Below are positions 13,901 to 49,165 of a DNA stretch of 64,000 nt, one piece after another. Source of the stretch: Chondrosia reniformis (taxonomy: Eukaryota > Porifera > Demospongiae > Chondrillida > Chondrillidae); contig OX359198.1 of the NCBI GenBank assembly GCA_947172415.1, positions 5,425,401 through 5,489,400 of the forward strand. The letters run 5' to 3'. The first letter of the stretch is position 1; every line of letters starts with the position of its first letter. The notes under the pieces were generated by a model. That model was not told the DNA's origin, made no database searches, and was given only the letters and a program-made list of their open reading frames with translations. Position numbers and translations under genes: made by a program.

Positions 13901-14394
13901 GTGTCCACTGAGGCTGCATGCTAATTTGCAACTATTACAGATGAGATGCCTGATCATGTGATAGTCATGTGATCTAATTATGTGTGTTCAGGTACACTGC
14001 TCTGATGGAGGCAGCCAGAGAGGGTCATGCAGAAGTTGTTAAGTTGCTGGTTGCCAATGGTCAGGTTTTTTTAATTTGTAGCAGTGTATTAAGTGAAACA
14101 TTTGTGGTTTTCTTATCTCCAAAGGAGCCAATGTGAACTCTACTACAGAGGAAACCCAAGAGACTGCATTGACCCTCTCCTGCTGTGGAGGTTTCTTGCC
14201 TGTTGTCCAGTACCTGGTGGGAAAAGGTGCTGATATCGAGCAAGGTGGATCCACTCCACTGATGGAGGCCGCCCAGGAGGGACATCTGGACGTGGTCAGC
14301 TACCTCATCACTCAAGGGGCCAACATTCATGCCTGTTCTGCTGCCCTGGATACTGCCCTAACATGTGCCTGTGGAAATGGCCACACAAAAGTAA
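13901..14394 (+). pseudogene. Orphan duplicate of two ankyrin exons of the MASK gene
   Basis: Nearly identical to 28887-29378, including introns. It carries copies of two MASK exons (13992-14059 and 14125-14390) with intact acceptors, donors and open frame. Flanking MASK exons are absent: satellite repeats lie to the left, a minisatellite and a minus-strand gene to the right. A few base changes are present, one making Glu to Ala in the first exon. Because it sits about 15 kb upstream of its source, on the same strand and outside the gene, it is most simply a recent segmental copy without promoter or partner exons. An assembly artefact is possible. Confidence 0.85.
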
Positions 14395-26100: not shown

Positions 26101-29100
26101 TCAGCTGCAGGTAACTACTTTTGCTGTAAAGTATTTAAAGTACATACGTACATTAAGAGAGTTTCTTTTTAAAAATATCACAAGGTAGGATCAAATACAA
26201 TATGCATAGTAACACTTTGAGATGGAAACCTACTTCAATATCTTTGTTTGCTATGAAAAAATTAGCAATTTGACTTTCTTGAAGGAGTGGGAGGCACCCT
26301 CCCCCCGCCCCCTTAAAAGAGACCCTGGTATATATGTAGTGAACATATCAGCAAGTACGTAGTATATGCAAGTGGTAACTATTAGCAGGTTAACGTTACC
26401 TTTTTATGATCAGTACTAGTAAACACATTAGCAAGTACGTATCTAGTATATATGTGTATTGTCGTATTGTTGCTACGTACGTACGTATGTATATGTACGT
26501 ATGCAGGACTGTATATACGTACATAAAGTGTATCAGTAACAAGCATAATAGAGATCATATGTACATACCCACTCGCCCCCTTAAAAGAGACCCTGGTACA
26601 TACGTACGTATGTAGTGAACATATCAGCAAGTACGTAGTATATGCAAGTGGTAACCATTAGCAGATTAACGTTACCTTTTTATGATCAGTACTGTATGTA
26701 GTGAACATACAAGTGTGTAGTATTTTATATACATTAAGTGTATCAGTAACAAACACAATAGAGATTTACATACCTACCCTATGTGTCCTATTTCATTGTA
26801 GGCAATACTGCTCTGACATATGCTTGCTGTGGAGGTTTTGAAGACGTGGTAGTGTTGCTGCTGGATGCAGGAGCTGATGTTGAAGAACCAAATGAGAATG
26901 GTCACACTCCCCTAATGGAGGCTGCGTCAGGAGGCCATATTGGTTAGCGGAATGGTGTTGGTGAATGTGTGTATATTTGTGTTGGTGACAGGACACACTG
27001 ACAGTGTGGAGTGACTAACACCTTAGACAGATTCTTGTAGGTAGAGCTAGATTTAGCACCCAATGTATACATTATAGAATTGTAGATACATTTGATCTTG
27101 AAAATGGAGGAACAGGTAGAGGAACTCTGGTAGAGAATGTTTTTAACTAACTAAGCATTTTATAAACAAATTGTAATTATTCCACACCTTTTGACATCAC
27201 CAGATGTCACACCCTTTCCCCATTTAAACTACACAGCTTGTTTTCCCATTCCTCATATATTGCTGATGAAGACCTCCGGGTTGAAACATCCTAAATCCAT
27301 GTTGCTGATGCTCAATAAGGCTTTATTCTCAAACAAATTATGAATACAGTTAATCTGTAATTTTTGGTGCAAAACTTAAGAAACACATCTGTTCAGTGTT
27401 CCTTTAAGTAGCCATTTTCTTGTGGTTTTTCTCACATGTAGCTAGGCAATTTTTGTAAAATGAAGTTATGAAGTCAGTAAAGTTTCAAAGCTCTGTGAAT
27501 CCTGATACCCAGTTGCCATGCCAACCAAACATGCCAAAGTGTACCTGATATTAATGTAATACCAATTAATGGCAGTCTTTAAGGCATGTTACACTGCCTA
27601 ATGTACTTTATTGATAGTCTTAAGTGCTCCTAGGCCTAGTGCTCTCTTTGTGGAAGCATTATCAGCTGATATTGCTAATGTAAGATCCTAATGGACTGTT
27701 ATGTGGTTGGATGATTGCACTGTTTGTGAATGCAGTGCAGATACAAGTGATTGGATATAAGCATTAAGTAAACACCACAATTACAATTTAAAACATATAA
27801 TATTGTTTATCTGGTAGTGTGTGTGTTCACAAGCCTAATTGTAGCTTTACCACTGCTAAAATGGTTGTGGTTTTGGGATATCAGGTGTGATATGTTTCTA
27901 TCACTTTAGGTGTGGCTGGCTTGCTGTTGAACTACAAAGCTAACATTAACAAACACTCCTCAGAGTTCAAGGAGTCTGCGCTCACACTAGCCTGCTACAA
28001 GGGTCATCTTGGAATGGTCAGGTTCTTGTTAGAGAAAGGAGCAGATCAGGAACACAAGACAGACGAGATGCACACTGCACTCATGGAGGCTTCGATGGTC
28101 AGTTACTATGGCAATGTCATGTGATTTTTACTCTGTATATTGTTCAACATTCCTATCATTAATTATTGTATAGTTGTGTCTTTTTGACTAAAATATGCAT
28201 CAAATTACATTTAGATGATATGGATTTTTTCTAACTGTGCCAAACTTATCTTTGAGATAGTTCATCTTTAGTCTTCTGAGCGTCTAGAGATGTAGTTTGT
28301 TTTCTGGAGAGTCGGATGTTTTAACCCCTGGGGGTCTTCTTCAGTAACTGATAGTGACTGCTGGAGGTTGCCTCTTTTATAGAACCATCCGACTCTGTAG
28401 AAAACAGACTGTGTCTCTACACGTTCAAAAGACCAAAGATAAGTCATCTCAAATTGCATTTAACATGTGAAGATCTAAAATTGGTTTCTTTGACCAGTTT
28501 TCTTTCTGTGAATTATTATTCCAATGTTAATTAAGCATCTAGTATTGTTTACCATTATTCTTGCAACTCTGTTGCCATGGTTACTTGACCTTCTCTTCCC
28601 TCAGGATGGTCATGTTGATGTTGCCCGTCTGCTACTGGATCACGGAGCCCATGTGAACATGCCAAAGGACAGTTTTGAATCACCTTTGACCTTAGCGTCC
28701 TGTGGAGGGCACTACGACCTTGCTGCCCTGCTGATATCCCGAGGTGCTCAGCTCGAGGAAACTAACGATGAAGGGTAGGTCCACTGACGTCACACACGTG
28801 TGATAGCAGTGATATAGCAGCCCGTGATGGTACTGACAAGCATATGTCTGACCACGCCCCTAGGGGGCGGTGAAGAGTGCTAACTGGTGTCCACTGAGGC
28901 TACATGCTAGTTTGCCACCATTACAGATGAGATGCCTGATCATGTGATAGTCATGTGATCTAATTATGTGTGTTCAGGTACACTGCTCTGATGGAGGCAG
29001 CCAGAGAGGGTCACGAAGAAGTTGTCAAGTTGCTAGTTGCCAATGGTCAGTTTTTTTGATTTGTAGCAGTGTATTAGATGAAACAGTTGTGGTTTCCTTA

Positions 29101-32100
29101 TCTCCAAAGGAGCCAATGTGAACTCTACTACGGAGGAAACCCAAGAGACTGCATTGACCCTCTCCTGCTGTGGAGGTTTCTTGCCTGTTGTCCAGTACCT
29201 GGTGGGAAAAGGTGCTGATATCGAGCAAGGTGGATCCACTCCACTGATGGAGGCCGCCCAGGAGGGACATCTGGACGTGGTCAGCTACCTCATCACTCAA
29301 GGGGCCAACATTCATGCCTGTTCTGCTGCCCTGGATACTGCCCTAACATGTGCCTGCGGAAATGGCCACACAAAAGTAAAATGGGACACTGAAAATTTTC
29401 TCTGTCCTTTGTTGTGAAGACATTTAACTTCACCCTTTTTCTCTGTTTACACCCACATTAGCCACACCCCTTTTCTTCCTGGTATTGCCTACATTTAGCC
29501 ACACCCTTTTCTCCCTGGTTCCACCCATATTTAGCTCTACTACCTTAACATATTAACTCCACCCCTTTATGTCTGTTGACTTTAGAGGGCCTTCATAATT
29601 ATGTGTGAATATGCATGTAGGTTGCCATGCTGTTAGTGGATCACAATGCTGAGATTGAACACGAGAGTGAAGGTGGAAGGACACCTTTGATGAAGGCAGC
29701 TCGACAAGGACACCTTGAAACTGTGAAGTTTCTCATCGACAGAGGTACGTAGGCATATAGTAAACCTCTTGTTGAATATATTACTGTATAGCCAGAAATA
29801 TTGGCAGTGAATTTATTTTGGCAAATTGGCGATTTTCGCACAAATCGCCAAATGATGATCCACCCAAATTATGTATTATGGCATCATAGTGACATAATCT
29901 ACTGTGATGTACTGTGTAGTAACCACCAAAATTACAAATGCCAATATTTTAATCGGTCCAAAATTGCCAAATATTCTTCCCGCCAATAATTCCGGCTCTA
30001 TGGTATATGTTGGTTATAATTACTGTGATTGTATGACAGGTGCGGATGCCAATAGGTGCACTGCCAATCAGGACCATACTGTGCTATCTCTGGCCTGTGC
30101 TGGCGGACATCTTGGTGTTGTGCAATACCTCCTTTCCAAAGGGGCTGACCCAACTTCCTTACTGAAGGTACTTATTTACTTACTTGAATCATGAATATTA
30201 TTCCATGATTTAAAGTTCATTTGCCTCTTATTCTAATGTGACCTTCTCTTCTGTCTCGCAAAGGATAACTCGACCATGCTGATAGAGGCAGCCAGAGGAG
30301 GGCACACAGCTGTGGCTTGTCTGCTCTTGAAGCAAGCCATTGGCGTCCCTCCCCCCCAGGGTGAGATCTCCACCGCTGGTGTTCCATCCTTGCAACAGCA
30401 GGCTCTACTTCAGGCCTCACAAGCCGGCCTCCTTGGGGGAGTGTCCTCTATGATGCACAGTCTGGCACCGCCCATTGAAAATCAAAATTGGGATCAAGCT
30501 AAATTGGAAATGAGAAGTGAGGCTACATCGGGACCAATGGTAAGTCTCACTCTGCCATATACCATATATGTACTGTACTGTGCTGTGATGTGGTGTGTTT
30601 GGTTGTTGTTAGGTATGATGTGGTGTGATGTTGTGTGATGTGGTCTATCCCCTGTAGCAAGTACCTGGTATATCACTTACTGGGTCGTTCAACATGAGGT
30701 ATCCACCAGTCGGGGCTGGAGCCACGCCCATATCTGCTCGTCTGCCCAAGTCATCCCGAAAACGAGCACCACCCCAGATAGTGACATCTGATGAGAGCTC
30801 GTTGGAAGACCACCTAGTGCCACACCCAATGACACACCCTCTGCCTGAGCTGATGTCCAGTCAGCAGCGGCAGCCTCCCATTGGCCAGTGCTCACCTGAT
30901 GTGCCATCTGTTGCCATAGAAACACAGGCAGCCATGCTTCCGATGAAACTGCACTCCAACAGTTACCTAGGAGATTTTGATAACCTGCGCATTCCTCCCG
31001 AGTTTCTACCATCCAGGAACAGAGGTCTTTTGAAATCACTGAAAGGGTAAGTCTGTGCAGCAAGCAATATTCCTCCTGATCGCACAGCAGTGCAAGATTC
31101 ACATTTATCTCCATTGTCTCCATATTCAGTCTTGGGTATAGTAGTACCTGTTTTGTACAGTGTGTTAAATAGAGGTATAAGTCTTCAATTGAGCAATCAG
31201 CAACAAAATTCAATTAGTAGAACGTTTCGACCCGTATGTCTTCATCAGCTAAATGATGATGTGTGTACAGAATATGTATTAAATATATAGCCTACTTTCT
31301 GATTTGTAACTGTAAAACTCGTGTGAACAGGTTTGCTCATTTGTACCTGAAGGAGTGCAATGTTGCATCTCAGTGATATGGTTATGTATTCTGTGTCTGG
31401 GTTATGATCGCTTTACGTGTATTTTAGGGGAGGAATGAGAAGAGCATTCTCAATGGAGACCTTGCCACGAGAGATGATCTACGGGGGAGGGTTGGAAGGA
31501 GGAGTCAATCCCATCTACATTCCTGCTTATCCATCGATAGCCAATCAGATTGAAGAGTCAGCATTGAAGAACATGGCCATGCCAACCAAACAGGAGATAC
31601 AGCAGTTTCAGGAGGTGAGACCTGTTTCCATGGTTACTTGTGTGCTGTTTCCATAGTTACGTGTGCATCTTTCTATTGGTCAGTGATGATATAAAATGAC
31701 AAGCATATGTCATAAACTATATTCATTGATGAATACACAATAACTGAGACCAATTAAAAAAATTGCAACATTAAAGTTATTGCTTCATGTAGAGATTATT
31801 TGTTATGTTTCCATGACAACAGATGTTGATTCGAAGAGTGAGGGAAGCCCAAGAACAGATCCTACCAGGACAAGACTATCGTTACTATGGTTACGAGACT
31901 TACGATGATGAAGAGGAAGATTTTGATGATGATAGAAGTGATGTGATGGAAGGTTCAGATGATGGGAGTGATGGCAGTGATGGAGGTGATGGTGACGATG
32001 AAGATGAGGGAGATGAGGATTTGGATCTACCAGGTAAGAGGCAATGTAGAGTAAAGTGTAACTCCTATAATGCTGTCACCTCCTCCTGATCCAACAGAGC

Positions 32101-43141: not shown

Positions 43142-46100
43142 ATGGCTAAAGTTCAAAGAAATCTCAGCCTTTTTATCTGTATTTTCTTATCTATTTTTTA
43201 CCAACTGACTAAATCAGAAGCTTTTGATGGTAAGTTAGATTGGCTATATAAACATATCTGATTGATCAATTTAGTCTTTATATAGCTATATATAGATCAA
43301 CGTACTGTACGTATATCTTTCAGGTTATATAGTTAGTTTACATATATACTGGAGAGAACAGAATTACAAAGTTGATTCTCAGTGTGGATATACTGTAAAT
43401 ATTTATATTTTAACAACGTAGGTATATGCAAATTATGGTATCAAAAGTGAAAATCCTTGATATCATTACCAAGTTAAATATTACCTAGCCATATTTTTAG
43501 TAACATATTATAGACCAGCTGCAGTCTATGGTATAAATTAAAGATAAGGGAATATTTGGCATGTACGTTGACTGTATGGCCAGAAATTTTGGTGTATTGG
43601 TGGTTTTGAGAGCAATCTGCCAATATTTCAACTGTCAAGCTACCCCAAATATACGTAGGAGAACTATCTTATTAGTAAGTAAATTATTATTATTACTTAA
43701 AAAGGTTGTGTTCTTTTATAATTAGATATATTTTATAGAAGAATCTTGTTAATAAAAGTAAAATTCACCAAATGAGCAATGCACCAAATATTCTTCCAGT
43801 GCCAAAGTTTCCGGCTATATTATATAGAATATAGAGCATAATGTCTAGACATGTATTATGTATATAACTCTCTTGCAGTTGATAGGAACCTACCATTGCC
43901 ACGTTTGTTACCTAATGGGCTGATATATGCAGAAGGATCCAATGCTAAAGTGAATTGTTCAGTGGACGAACTTAAAGTGGATTCAATTACTGTAATTCAG
44001 TTTCGCTTCAGTATTAATGGAAGTGAATATACAACTGACCCTCACCTGGTAACACCTGAAAATTCCATTGAGCTTATTCCACGATCACCTCTAAGCACTC
44101 ACTTTGCATTCATCATTAAAAATATTTCTGAACTTTTTGATGGTGTTTCCATATCATGTCATTACCTCTATGGGAGACCTGAATATGTAGATCAGGATCT
44201 TGTGCTTCATAATAGTGGAAAAGTTTCAGACACAGTAAAACTTGTTAGTAAGTTATAAATTATTAATTAAATAAGTTTGTTTCTTTTATGTATGTATATA
44301 TATGTTAATTGGGTGTGCACGATTGATTATCAGGTTGTTCTGATAAAAGAATCACCATTAATTAGTGAATAAAAATTAATTTGTAGTTAGTAGGAGGGAA
44401 ATATTAATGAAACATTGCTGTGGCAATTGTAGTTCAGTGGCAGAGCAATGGTGAATATAACCAGCTGTCCTGGGTTTGATTCCCAGCAATTGCTTTTTTT
44501 GCATTTTCCCCTCTTTACTTCTTAAAGTTTGAAAGTAATTATAATAACATCTACGTACTTGTTGTTCTTGATTATCACTTCAATTATTCATGCATATGCT
44601 AAGAGTGGGAGGAAGTTACCCCAATGTAACAATTATAAATATATATATTTGTACATAACAATAATATAATACGTACACGCATATGACTTTATATATTATT
44701 ATTATTATTATTATTAATATTATTTGAGTGCTTCATGTGTTGTGCACACTAGGTCTATTTAGACCATGTAGCACTATACAAAGATACATAATAGTCAAAA
44801 CTGATGAATGTCTACAGTTTTGCCTTTCCCATCTTCACATATATATATACAGTATATATATATATAGGTACATCACCTGAAACTCCACGACAGTGTGAAC
44901 TAGATATAATTGATGAAACTTTGGTCATTACATGGTACAGCACTGGGAAATATGTTGAGAAATATCATTACAGAGTCATTTTGGAAGAAGAAGATGTAAC
45001 TGGGGAGGTTTATAGTGATAGGTCAAAGAAAGGTTACACAGTTGATGTGCCAATAGACGTTGAGATAGAGGGGACTTACAACATCACAGTATATATTTTC
45101 ACTGTCAACATTATTGGATCAAGTTCTCCCTGCATTTCACACATTTTATGGGTTGGTGAAGATGAAGGTATGTTGACACTGTTGCACGCATGTCTATATA
45201 TATATCATCCTTACGTATATAGCCTCTTAGCATGTCAACCATATATAATACATATAGGCCAGGAGGCCACACATTCTGAAACTATGGGCTTGTATATACA
45301 TATATATAGTATGCATGTTAATCAGACACAAACATACATAAATTATAATAAGTTCGACAGCTTTTGAATTAGGTGAATGCTCGATCATCTTATATATACA
45401 TTTTTATATACAGAATGGATTTGCGTGATTTTTATCAAAATATATATACCATTTTACTGTATATTACTCTTTTATTGTATAGAGTTTGCTCTGGAAGGTG
45501 ATATAAGAGAATCCATTCTTGATCAACAGACTTCAGTAATAGTTGGAGTTTCAGTTGGAGCATTTGCTCTTCTCCTCCTAATCCTCCTGGTGGTGCTTAT
45601 TGCAATAATATGCTGTTGCTATAAAAGGTAAGATTCCTTTGAGTCCTTGAAGTTTCAGGTGGTATATCTATATAATACAGTCTGTCTTTCTATATATTAT
45701 ACATACATATATGCATTATAACAATTTATTCGCTTTTCAAAAATTTGTTCCTAGAACACTTCAAGCTAGTCTTATTTCCAATTGTGCAATTATACATATT
45801 ATATATATACATATGCCCAATGATTTCCTGCAAATGTGTCATTATATATATATGAAGATAGCTATAGATTTTTTCTTCTTCTATTATAGGAGTAAGAAGG
45901 AGTCACAAAGAGAGAAGGTCAAATATAAGACACATACATTCATAACGCATGTACATGTGTATATTTATGTAGCATATTTATGATTATATAATGGACTTGT
46001 ATCTTTTCTACTGTTTAATGGAAGTTGACTTTGAAAAGTCCATTTTCATTTTAATATATATAGTCTCATATATGCTAATATGTACTTTATAAGGATTTTA

Positions 46101-46476
46101 TTATTATAATAGTTCTATTATCCATTATTTACAGAATGATACAGCCTCTTTGGATAACACCTATGCTACCCTAGGTGCCACCACTACTGATGTGTATACC
46201 CACCTCTACAATAATACAAATATTGCTCAGAGACAAGGCGAAAATATAGGAAAACCTGAAGCAGAGTTTATTGAATATTCTGTAGTCAAGGACTGCTTAG
46301 TACCTGAACAACCATACATAGAACCTATTAGCTTGACTAACCCTCCTCCTCCCCCACTACCTCCTTCTCGTGATGTGAAGAAGAGGCTTCAGGTACAGGA
46401 CACAGAAGGCTATGCTTCAGTTAAAAATGAATCTCCAGTGGTCATTAAAGTGAGACGAGAAGCTACAGCTAATTAG
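43142..46476 (+). CDS. Ig-like/FN3 single-pass receptor with ITAM in the tail
   Basis: Six exons, 423 aa, phases consistent: 43142-43229, 43879-44247, 44868-45167, 45483-45627, 45890-45917, 46135-46476 (stop TAG 46474). Exon 1 is a signal peptide (LSLFICIFLSIFY). Exon 2 (about 30-152) looks like an Ig-type domain with Cys in NCSVDEL and ISCHYLYG. Exon 3 (about 153-252) is FN3-like (LVITWYSTGKYVEKYHYRV). Exon 4 has the membrane helix (VGAFALLLLILLVVLIAII) and a basic stop-transfer run. Exon 6 is the tail: YATLGATTTDVYTHL (Tyr320 and Tyr331, YxxL-x7-YxxL), IEYSVV (ITIM-like), YIEP, YASV, and PPPPPLPPSR (SH3 ligand, PxxPxR). The tail predicts phosphotyrosine signalling through SH2 kinases. Ligand unknown. 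The donor of exon 5 (gtcaaa) is weak, though phase supports it. Confidence 0.85.
43571..43822. mobile_element. MITE with inverted ends, family A
   Basis: Left end TATGGCCAGAAATTTTGG, right end CCAAAGTTTCCGGCTATA (inverse). Related to 29784-30003. Lies in intron 1 of the Ig/FN3 receptor gene. Confidence 0.7.
44311..44600 (+). mobile_element. tRNA-derived SINE, copy 3 (best tRNA cloverleaf)
   Basis: Positions 44423-44493 fold as a tRNA: acceptor GCAATTG/CAATTGC, D-arm GTTC...GAGC, T-arm CTGGG-TTTGATT-CCCAG with box B GGTTTGATTCC. The anticodon stem has one mismatch and the loop lacks the invariant T33, so it is a retroposed relic, not a tRNA gene. The left and right flanks match the copies at 1033 and 7255. 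A reverse-oriented 3' fragment lies at 54357-54450. Confidence 0.8.
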
Positions 46477-48539: not shown

Positions 48540-49165
48540 TATATTTCCACTTCCATCACCACCGCGCTGGTGGCAGAGTGATGCGAGAGAGAAGCGTATA
48601 GAATAAGAGGAAGCTTCTGGAATTTGATCAATTACAACGTTAGTCAGTTTTTTCCTTTTTTTCTTAATCATTTCACAACGTAATTGCATATAAATAGTCC
48701 ATTTTAACATGACCATTCAGGCCTGCCAGCTTGGAGCCTCGGGTAAGGGAGTAAGTCCTAACTCGTTGGCTTGGCAGTGTCTAGGTTCCGTAGCTGCCCT
48801 GTATCGGTTGGTGCCATGGGGATGTGCTCACCAATTATCGATTTATCGATACAACAGAAGGCCGGTTCTGTCACTCCGTGACTACCAAAGCCGAAACTGC
48901 ACCAGTTAGGCGTTACCAACGATCCTGGCCCCAGATTACCAGCGATGGAAGGACGGCTCGCATTGTGGATGGTAACGTGAACTCCCTGCGTCGAGCAAAA
49001 TCCAAGTCACACCTCCTCGTGGTGCTCGACGGTAACAGCAGTCTCTGCTGGCTAACGTGACTGGTTTTTTCTTTTTTCTTATCGTTAGTATATCGCGATA
49101 TTTGTTGTAACCCAATGAGAATGGACGTTTTTCTCTTTTTTCCTTATTGTTAGCATATCGTGATA
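48540..49165. other. GC-richer island of unknown nature
   Basis: 48540-49065 is clearly GC-richer than its surroundings and not low-complexity, but no frame resembles a known protein. It is followed by two diverged copies (about 88-bp period) of a block containing TTATCGTTAGTATATCGCGA. It could be a fragment of a retroelement. Confidence 0.4.

What the first reader, a model, noticed from the sequence alone, without database searches (positions are those of the whole stretch)
43142..46476. Sponge Ig/FN3 receptor with a textbook ITAM
The cytoplasmic tail reads YATLGATTTDVYTHL: two YxxL boxes separated by seven residues with Asp before each, exactly the ITAM spacing used by antigen and Fc receptors. 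It is followed by an IxYxxV (ITIM-like) site, a YxxP site and a PxxPxR SH3 ligand. ITAM receptors are best known in vertebrates, where Syk/ZAP-70 read them. Syk-type kinases are reported in sponges, so a pre-vertebrate ITAM pathway is plausible. The extracellular Ig-like and FN3 domains, signal peptide and single membrane helix make this a complete candidate immune or allorecognition receptor.
Basis: partly seen in the sequence, partly recalled or inferred. Interest (0 to 1): 0.87.

Follow-up and report, generated by a model that had tools for sequence, protein, structure and literature searches.

The report
Sponge receptor with ITAM-like tail
A kidney-sponge gene appears to encode a cell-surface receptor whose inner tail carries a pair of tyrosine motifs spaced like those of vertebrate immune receptors, in a genome that also has the matching Syk-type enzyme, but its three relatives found so far share a different tyrosine module, so immune-type signalling remains a testable idea and not a result.

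Summary
The tail motif is real: a six-exon GT-AG model gives 423 aa with a signal-peptide-like start, one membrane helix and YATL-x7-YTHL. The window fits chromosome 10 of the kidney sponge Chondrosia reniformis. Three related loci were found, all on chromosome 1; FN3 is supported through them (best E=5.9e-5), Ig only weakly. In all four genes the tail ends with one module: [E/G]YxxV[K/R]D, a proline-containing stretch, then DTxGYxx[V/L]. The ITAM pair was seen only in the window gene. The fully modelled relative has no YxxL/I/V pair 5-12 residues apart; in the other two the tail exons before the last were not resolved. Shuffling gives ITAM spacing in 0.66% of tails of this make-up. Syk-type and SHP-type genes are encoded in the same genome. 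Best reading: a small sponge family of phosphotyrosine-docking receptors, in one of which a cis-ITAM able to engage Syk has arisen or survived. ITAM/ITIM IgSF receptors are already reported in a cnidarian, an oyster and a tunicate; my library searches found none in sponges.

The parts
43142..43229 (+). exon 1: signal-peptide-like MAKVQRNLSLFICIFLSIFYQLTKSEAFD
   Evidence: by eye, no predictor; GT donor, ends in phase 1 as in the modelled paralogue
43879..44247 (+). exon 2: Ig-like ectodomain exon (Cys56...Cys123, D-G-V-S-I-S-C)
   Evidence: no Pfam hit itself; one relative Ig_3 E=0.06, another none
44868..45167 (+). exon 3: fibronectin type III-like exon
   Evidence: no Pfam hit itself; relatives fn3 E=4.6e-4 and 5.9e-5
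45483..45627 (+). exon 4: stalk and transmembrane helix (about residues 271-297, no charged residue inside), followed by CCC-YKR
45890..45917 (+). exon 5: short juxtamembrane basic exon (SKKESQREK), phase 2 to 0, counterpart modelled in one paralogue
46135..46476 (+). exon 6: cytoplasmic tail and stop
46162..46206 (+). ITAM-like pair YATL-GATTTDV-YTHL (Tyr320, Tyr331)
   Evidence: no such pair in the modelled paralogue
46276..46287 (+). ITIM-like Tyr358 (I-E-Y-S-V-V), start of the shared module
46354..46371 (+). PLPPSR, PxxPxR-type SH3 ligand inside the proline run of the module
   Evidence: shorter proline stretches at this place in relatives
46411..46422 (+). Tyr403 (VQDTEGYASV), second tyrosine of the shared module
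   Evidence: one-to-one blastp of query 395-417 with the paralogue: 52% identity, E=0.001; also in L066 and L067

Best explanation
A sponge type I single-pass receptor of a small family (four members found): Ig-like exon, FN3-like exon, membrane helix and a tail of tyrosine docking sites. Inferred working: ligand or neighbour-cell binding clusters the receptor; Src-family kinases phosphorylate the YxxL/V sites; the shared Tyr358 - proline - Tyr403 module recruits SH2/SH3 proteins such as an SHP-type phosphatase or adaptors; and in this member the extra Tyr320/Tyr331 pair has ITAM geometry and may bind Syk's tandem SH2 domains in cis, as recalled for FcgammaRIIA or CEACAM3. Shown: open gene model, family relation, motif positions, presence of Syk-, SHP- and Src-type genes. 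Inferred: expression, phosphorylation, binding partners, direction of signal, ligand.
For: Open model and same modelled intron phases as one paralogue. One-to-one alignment of ectodomains E=1e-11 and tail ends E=0.001 (these are pairwise values, the genome-wide ones are 0.015 and 0.3, but both matches lie in order on one strand). Two more members found through the paralogue's tail: L066 (tail match to the paralogue E=1e-8 in 3 kb) and L067 (genome-wide E=8e-8 with the L066 tail; ectodomain match to the query E=1.4e-5 in 3 kb). Shared module in 4 of 4: EYSVVKDC...VQDTEGYASV; EYATVRD...VQDTVGYSTV; EYATVKDC...VRDTVGYAIV; GYSLVKDC...AKDTEGYEML. YxxL/I/V sites are over-represented: 4 in the query (p=0.0098); in the paralogue 5 of 6 tail tyrosines (p=7.4e-4), or 6 of 7 if one at the membrane is counted (p=6e-5). 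Syk-type gene: hand-joined tandem SH2 matches SYK at 8.5e-47, kinase pieces ZAP-70 9e-77 and SYK 6e-76. SHP-type SH2 pieces match SHP-2 at 2e-30 with partial PTP matches downstream on the same strand. Src-type SH2-kinase open frames, named by eye.
Against: No expression, phosphorylation or binding data. Ig assignment is weak. Members outside chromosome 10 are diverged (about 22% identity for the modelled one), two of the three are only partly modelled, and no other sponge genome could be searched, so constraint on single tyrosines is hardly measured.
Confidence: 0.72

Rival explanations
1. True ITAM receptor: Tyr320/Tyr331 are doubly phosphorylated and their main role is to bind and activate Syk in cis.
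For: Exact ITAM grammar including acidic residues (shuffles 0.09% with D/E at -3); Syk-family gene whose two SH2 domains align with human SYK, including the FLLR/FLVR and the SRQEAE/NRAEAE arginines (their phosphotyrosine role is recalled).
Against: No YxxL/I/V pair at 5-12 in the modelled paralogue nor in the last tail exon of the other two members; per-tail chance 0.66% is not negligible across many receptor tails.
Confidence: 0.3
2. The ITAM spacing is a coincidence in a tyrosine-rich docking tail; each YxxL/V acts alone on single SH2 domains (SHP, Src, adaptors).
For: The family shares other sites; a single ETYATV occurs in the modelled paralogue.
Against: Acidic residues at both boxes and the 7-residue gap are more specific than a random pair.
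Confidence: 0.48
3. The YxxL/V boxes are clathrin-adaptor (YxxPhi) sorting signals for an endocytic or adhesion receptor.
For: YATL, YTHL, YSVV and YASV fit YxxPhi as a pattern; YxxPhi as an AP-2 ligand is recalled knowledge.
Against: Acidic flanks, a proline SH3-type run and an ITIM-like Tyr358 fit phosphotyrosine signalling better; the paralogue has five or six such sites, more than sorting should need (inference).
Confidence: 0.15

Closest known systems
Cis-ITAM IgSF receptors of vertebrates (FcgammaRIIA, CEACAM3; recalled)
   Same: Single-pass Ig-type receptor with its own ITAM in the tail
   Different: No significant match of any kind in the PDB sequence search (best E=0.52); adds an FN3-like exon, an ITIM-like site, a proline run and a GYxxV site
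Hydractinia Alr proteins (cnidarian allorecognition IgSF; passages of PMC12065747 and PMC11999971)
   Same: IgSF membrane proteins of an early-branching animal with ITAM/ITIM motifs
   Different: 41 genes in one complex (passage); here four genes found on two chromosomes, ITAM seen in one
Oyster CgIgIT2 (passage of PMC11999971)
   Same: Invertebrate IgSF membrane receptor with a classic ITAM
   Different: Five Ig domains, hemolymph expression and tested pathogen response; here one Ig-like and one FN3-like exon, function untested
Botryllus fuhc IgSF receptor family with ITIM and hemITAM (passages of PMC12065747)
   Same: Invertebrate IgSF with YxxL-type signalling motifs
   Different: hemITAM is a single box (recalled); here two boxes at ITAM spacing

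Membership tests
ITAM-bearing receptor | YxxL/I-x6-8-YxxL/I in a cytoplasmic tail | tested here: met
   YATL-x7-YTHL, Tyr320/331, C-terminal to the single membrane helix
ITAM-bearing receptor | Both boxes and spacing conserved among relatives | tested here: not met
   Among paralogues: none in the modelled paralogue; none in the last tail exon of L066 and L067, whose earlier tail exons were not resolved. Orthologues in other sponges were not available
ITAM-bearing receptor | Syk-family tandem-SH2 kinase in the same organism | tested here: met
   C6:6834501-6842400, minus strand
ITAM-bearing receptor | Doubly phosphorylated motif binds tandem SH2 | not testable with these tools
   needs peptide binding
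Immunoglobulin superfamily | Ig fold | tested here: inconclusive
FN3 proteins | fibronectin type III domain | tested here: inconclusive
   relatives fn3 4.6e-4 (20.8 bits) and 5.9e-5 (23.6 bits), both under the curated 25; query alone no hit
Allorecognition receptor | polymorphism or genetic linkage to fusion/rejection | not tested
   one haplotype only

The most novel reading that the evidence does not exclude
Sponges possess a working cis-ITAM receptor read by their own Syk, opposed by ITIM-type sites read by SHP phosphatases, so the activating/inhibitory tyrosine logic of immune receptors predates the split of sponges from other animals, with the receptors themselves free to turn over.
Probability: 0.26. 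Interest if true: 0.8.

Novelty: new variant of a known kind. Interest (0 to 1): 0.52.

Why it matters
Syk is already reported in sponges (passages of PMC2820527 and PMC9601881); in what I read no upstream sponge receptor was named. A receptor with a correct ITAM, in a genome with Syk- and SHP-type genes, gives a concrete pair to test by peptide binding. If it held, it would place ITAM signalling in sponges as well as cnidarians. The module shared by all four members, YxxV[K/R]D - proline - DTxGYxx[V/L], is a second and possibly better lead on what sponge receptors dock.

Tried and rejected
Pfam on the query and its exons: only membrane-helix noise, nothing for the tail. PDB by sequence: nothing significant. 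Paralogue search: one search gave 28 matches, 5 of them the gene itself; the 14 stretches cut out cover 17 of the other 23 and were searched again; only the chromosome 1 locus L021 matched Ig exon, FN3 exon and tail in order, the others matching mainly the membrane helix with some tail. Six of the 23 (C1:8631597, C1:8707367, C1:8498328, C10:1872853, C4:7692688, C8:7750178) were seen only as short loci, read on one strand, and not modelled. One search (its tail as query) gave 3 matches and a fourth member (L067). Both had been missed, so the family may be larger still. In L066 one strict YxxL/I pair occurs in an open frame between the membrane and last exons; I see no sign that it is exonic, but I did not resolve those exons; L067 has no strict pair in any of its three forward frames. 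An extra exon in intron 5 of the query, like the paralogue's VLYSEV exon, was looked for by eye and not seen. A genome-wide count of ITAMs was not tried: the message bars patterns over 35 places with sets of letters, and an ITAM codon pattern has 45. Literature: listings (34 papers, 25 listed); passages read (six papers); the other listed papers were not opened. None of the passages read reports a sponge ITAM receptor; the original Hydractinia Alr papers did not come up. One paper (PMC8662651, passage) lists Syk as emerging in vertebrates, which disagrees with the sponge Syk here and in PMC9601881.

Full report
What the window is. It is G000:C10:5425401-5489400 of a 117,379,552-base, 15-contig assembly. 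The Chondrosia reniformis assembly odChoReni1.1 spans 117.37 Mb in 14 chromosomes plus a mitochondrial genome (passages of PMC12181767). Of its 15 lengths I could compare 8: C1 10.41, C6 8.73, C8 8.13, C9 7.70, C10 7.66, C11 7.63 and C14 6.75 Mb agree; C4 is 8.954 Mb against 8.96 printed.

The gene. Six exons with GT-AG introns give 423 residues without a stop. A signal-peptide-like start (by eye), one membrane stretch, four N-glycosylation sequons in the ectodomain (residues 55, 76, 111, 224) and a CCC-YKR end suggest a type I single-pass receptor. The helix has no charged residue, so a partner chain with a charge pair, as recalled for the T-cell receptor, is not suggested; any ITAM would act in cis (inference).

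The tail. YATL-GATTTDV-YTHL is present with correct ITAM spacing and Asp at -3 and -2. Shuffling the tail 200,000 times gives the strict pattern in 0.66% and the version with D/E at -3 in 0.09%. These are per-tail figures. I did not count receptor tails in the genome; with many such tails a few chance ITAMs would be expected.

The relatives. The best modelled one is at C1:6808863-6810991, minus strand: seven exons, 488 residues, same phases 1,1,1,2,0 plus one extra tail exon. One-to-one blastp gives 22% identity and E=1e-11 for the ectodomains and 52% over 23 residues, E=0.001, for the tail end; the same matches have genome-wide E-values of only 0.015 and 0.3, and the case rests on their order on one strand. 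Both hold, in order, an Ig-like exon, an FN3-like exon, a membrane exon and a last tail exon; their ectodomains are nearly alike by eye; signal peptides and middle tail exons were not worked out. fn3 reaches 4.6e-4 in the first and 5.9e-5 in L066, under the curated cut-off in both; Ig_3 is 0.06 in the first and absent in L066.

What is shared. All four tails end with the same module: EYSVVKDC...VQDTEGYASV (window), EYATVRD...VQDTVGYSTV (L021), EYATVKDC...VRDTVGYAIV (L066), GYSLVKDC...AKDTEGYEML (L067), with prolines between. L021 carries a second, weaker copy (segments chosen by me). The L021 tail has 5 of 6 tyrosines in YxxL/I/V (p=7.4e-4; 6 of 7 and p=6e-5 if one at the membrane is counted) and no such pair 5-12 residues apart. 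By eye its LETYATV resembles the query's LDNTYATL, so the first box may survive there as YATV; the automatic alignment instead sets ETYATV against EYSVV. Under either reading the shared element is the module, not the ITAM. In L066 and L067 the last exon has no ITAM pair; their earlier tail exons are open.

The readers. Of 82 SH2 matches in the genome (30 loci looked at), one locus on C6 encodes an N-SH2, an inter-SH2 segment, a C-SH2 and a kinase in order. Hand-joined pieces match human SYK across the tandem SH2 at 8.5e-47, with the two arginines of each SH2 that are recalled to hold phosphotyrosine aligned, and the kinase pieces match ZAP-70 (9e-77) and SYK (6e-76); a chain with two EGFR copies scored higher by summing two matches of 172.5 bits. 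A 98-99% identical copy of the N-SH2 part lies 12.6 kb away. Two SH2-SH2-PTP orders lie on C3, minus strand: SH2 at 9116351 and 9113984 with a PTP piece at 9112923, and SH2 at 9110350 and 9108757 with a PTP piece at 9106746; the PTP matches cover only profile positions 41-82 and 39-85, and that search listed part of its matches. SH2 pieces of the first match SHP-2 at 2e-30. Src-type SH2-kinase open frames are several, named by eye. That any of these reads this tail is inference.

Known and new. Sponge Syk is known (passages of PMC2820527 and PMC9601881). ITAM/ITIM-type motifs are reported in IgSF receptors of Hydractinia, Botryllus and oyster (passages of PMC12065747 and PMC11999971). My searches and the passages read showed no sponge ITAM receptor. 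So this is a sponge candidate of a known kind with an unusual shared module, and not proof of an ITAM pathway in sponges.

Verdict. Sequence observation mainly right; interpretation partly supported. Multi-phosphotyrosine docking receptor 0.72; functional Syk-binding ITAM about 0.3.

Noticed in passing
window 48990-49062 (+): Rfam HDV-F-prausnitzii ribozyme match over the gathering score (47 against 44 bits, E=1.5e-5, model 1-74 of 74): an HDV-like self-cleaving ribozyme candidate in a sponge, possibly of a retroelement.
   Followed up: no
L021 (C1:6805001-6815000), reverse-complement 3-659: Next to the paralogue, on the same strand, a membrane-helix frame and a frame with EEYAQV, IEYADL and VEYALV: YxxV/L sites, two of them ITIM-like, another candidate sponge inhibitory-type receptor.
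   Followed up: no
L023 and L024 (C8:6246001-6266000): Repeated receptor-like stretches on the minus strand whose tails share QYATVGGPEYDEI and further tyrosines.
   Followed up: no
C9:1355380-1356363 and C9:1359696-1360658 (L042, L047, L050, L058): Two neighbouring open frames each with three SH2 matches in a row, an arrangement I do not recall from known families.
   Followed up: no
C5:7564293-7564526 (L044): SH2 followed by what looks by eye like ankyrin repeats, as recalled for Shark/HTK16-type kinases.
   Followed up: no
window 44422-44495 (+), intron 2: tRNA-like sequence, anticodon ATA, inside the intron; a 75% similar repeat at 1082-1180, so probably a tRNA-derived repeat.
   Followed up: partly
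window 14065-14364 and 29050-29349: 98% identical segments about 15 kb apart; the second encodes ankyrin repeats: a partial duplication.
   Followed up: no
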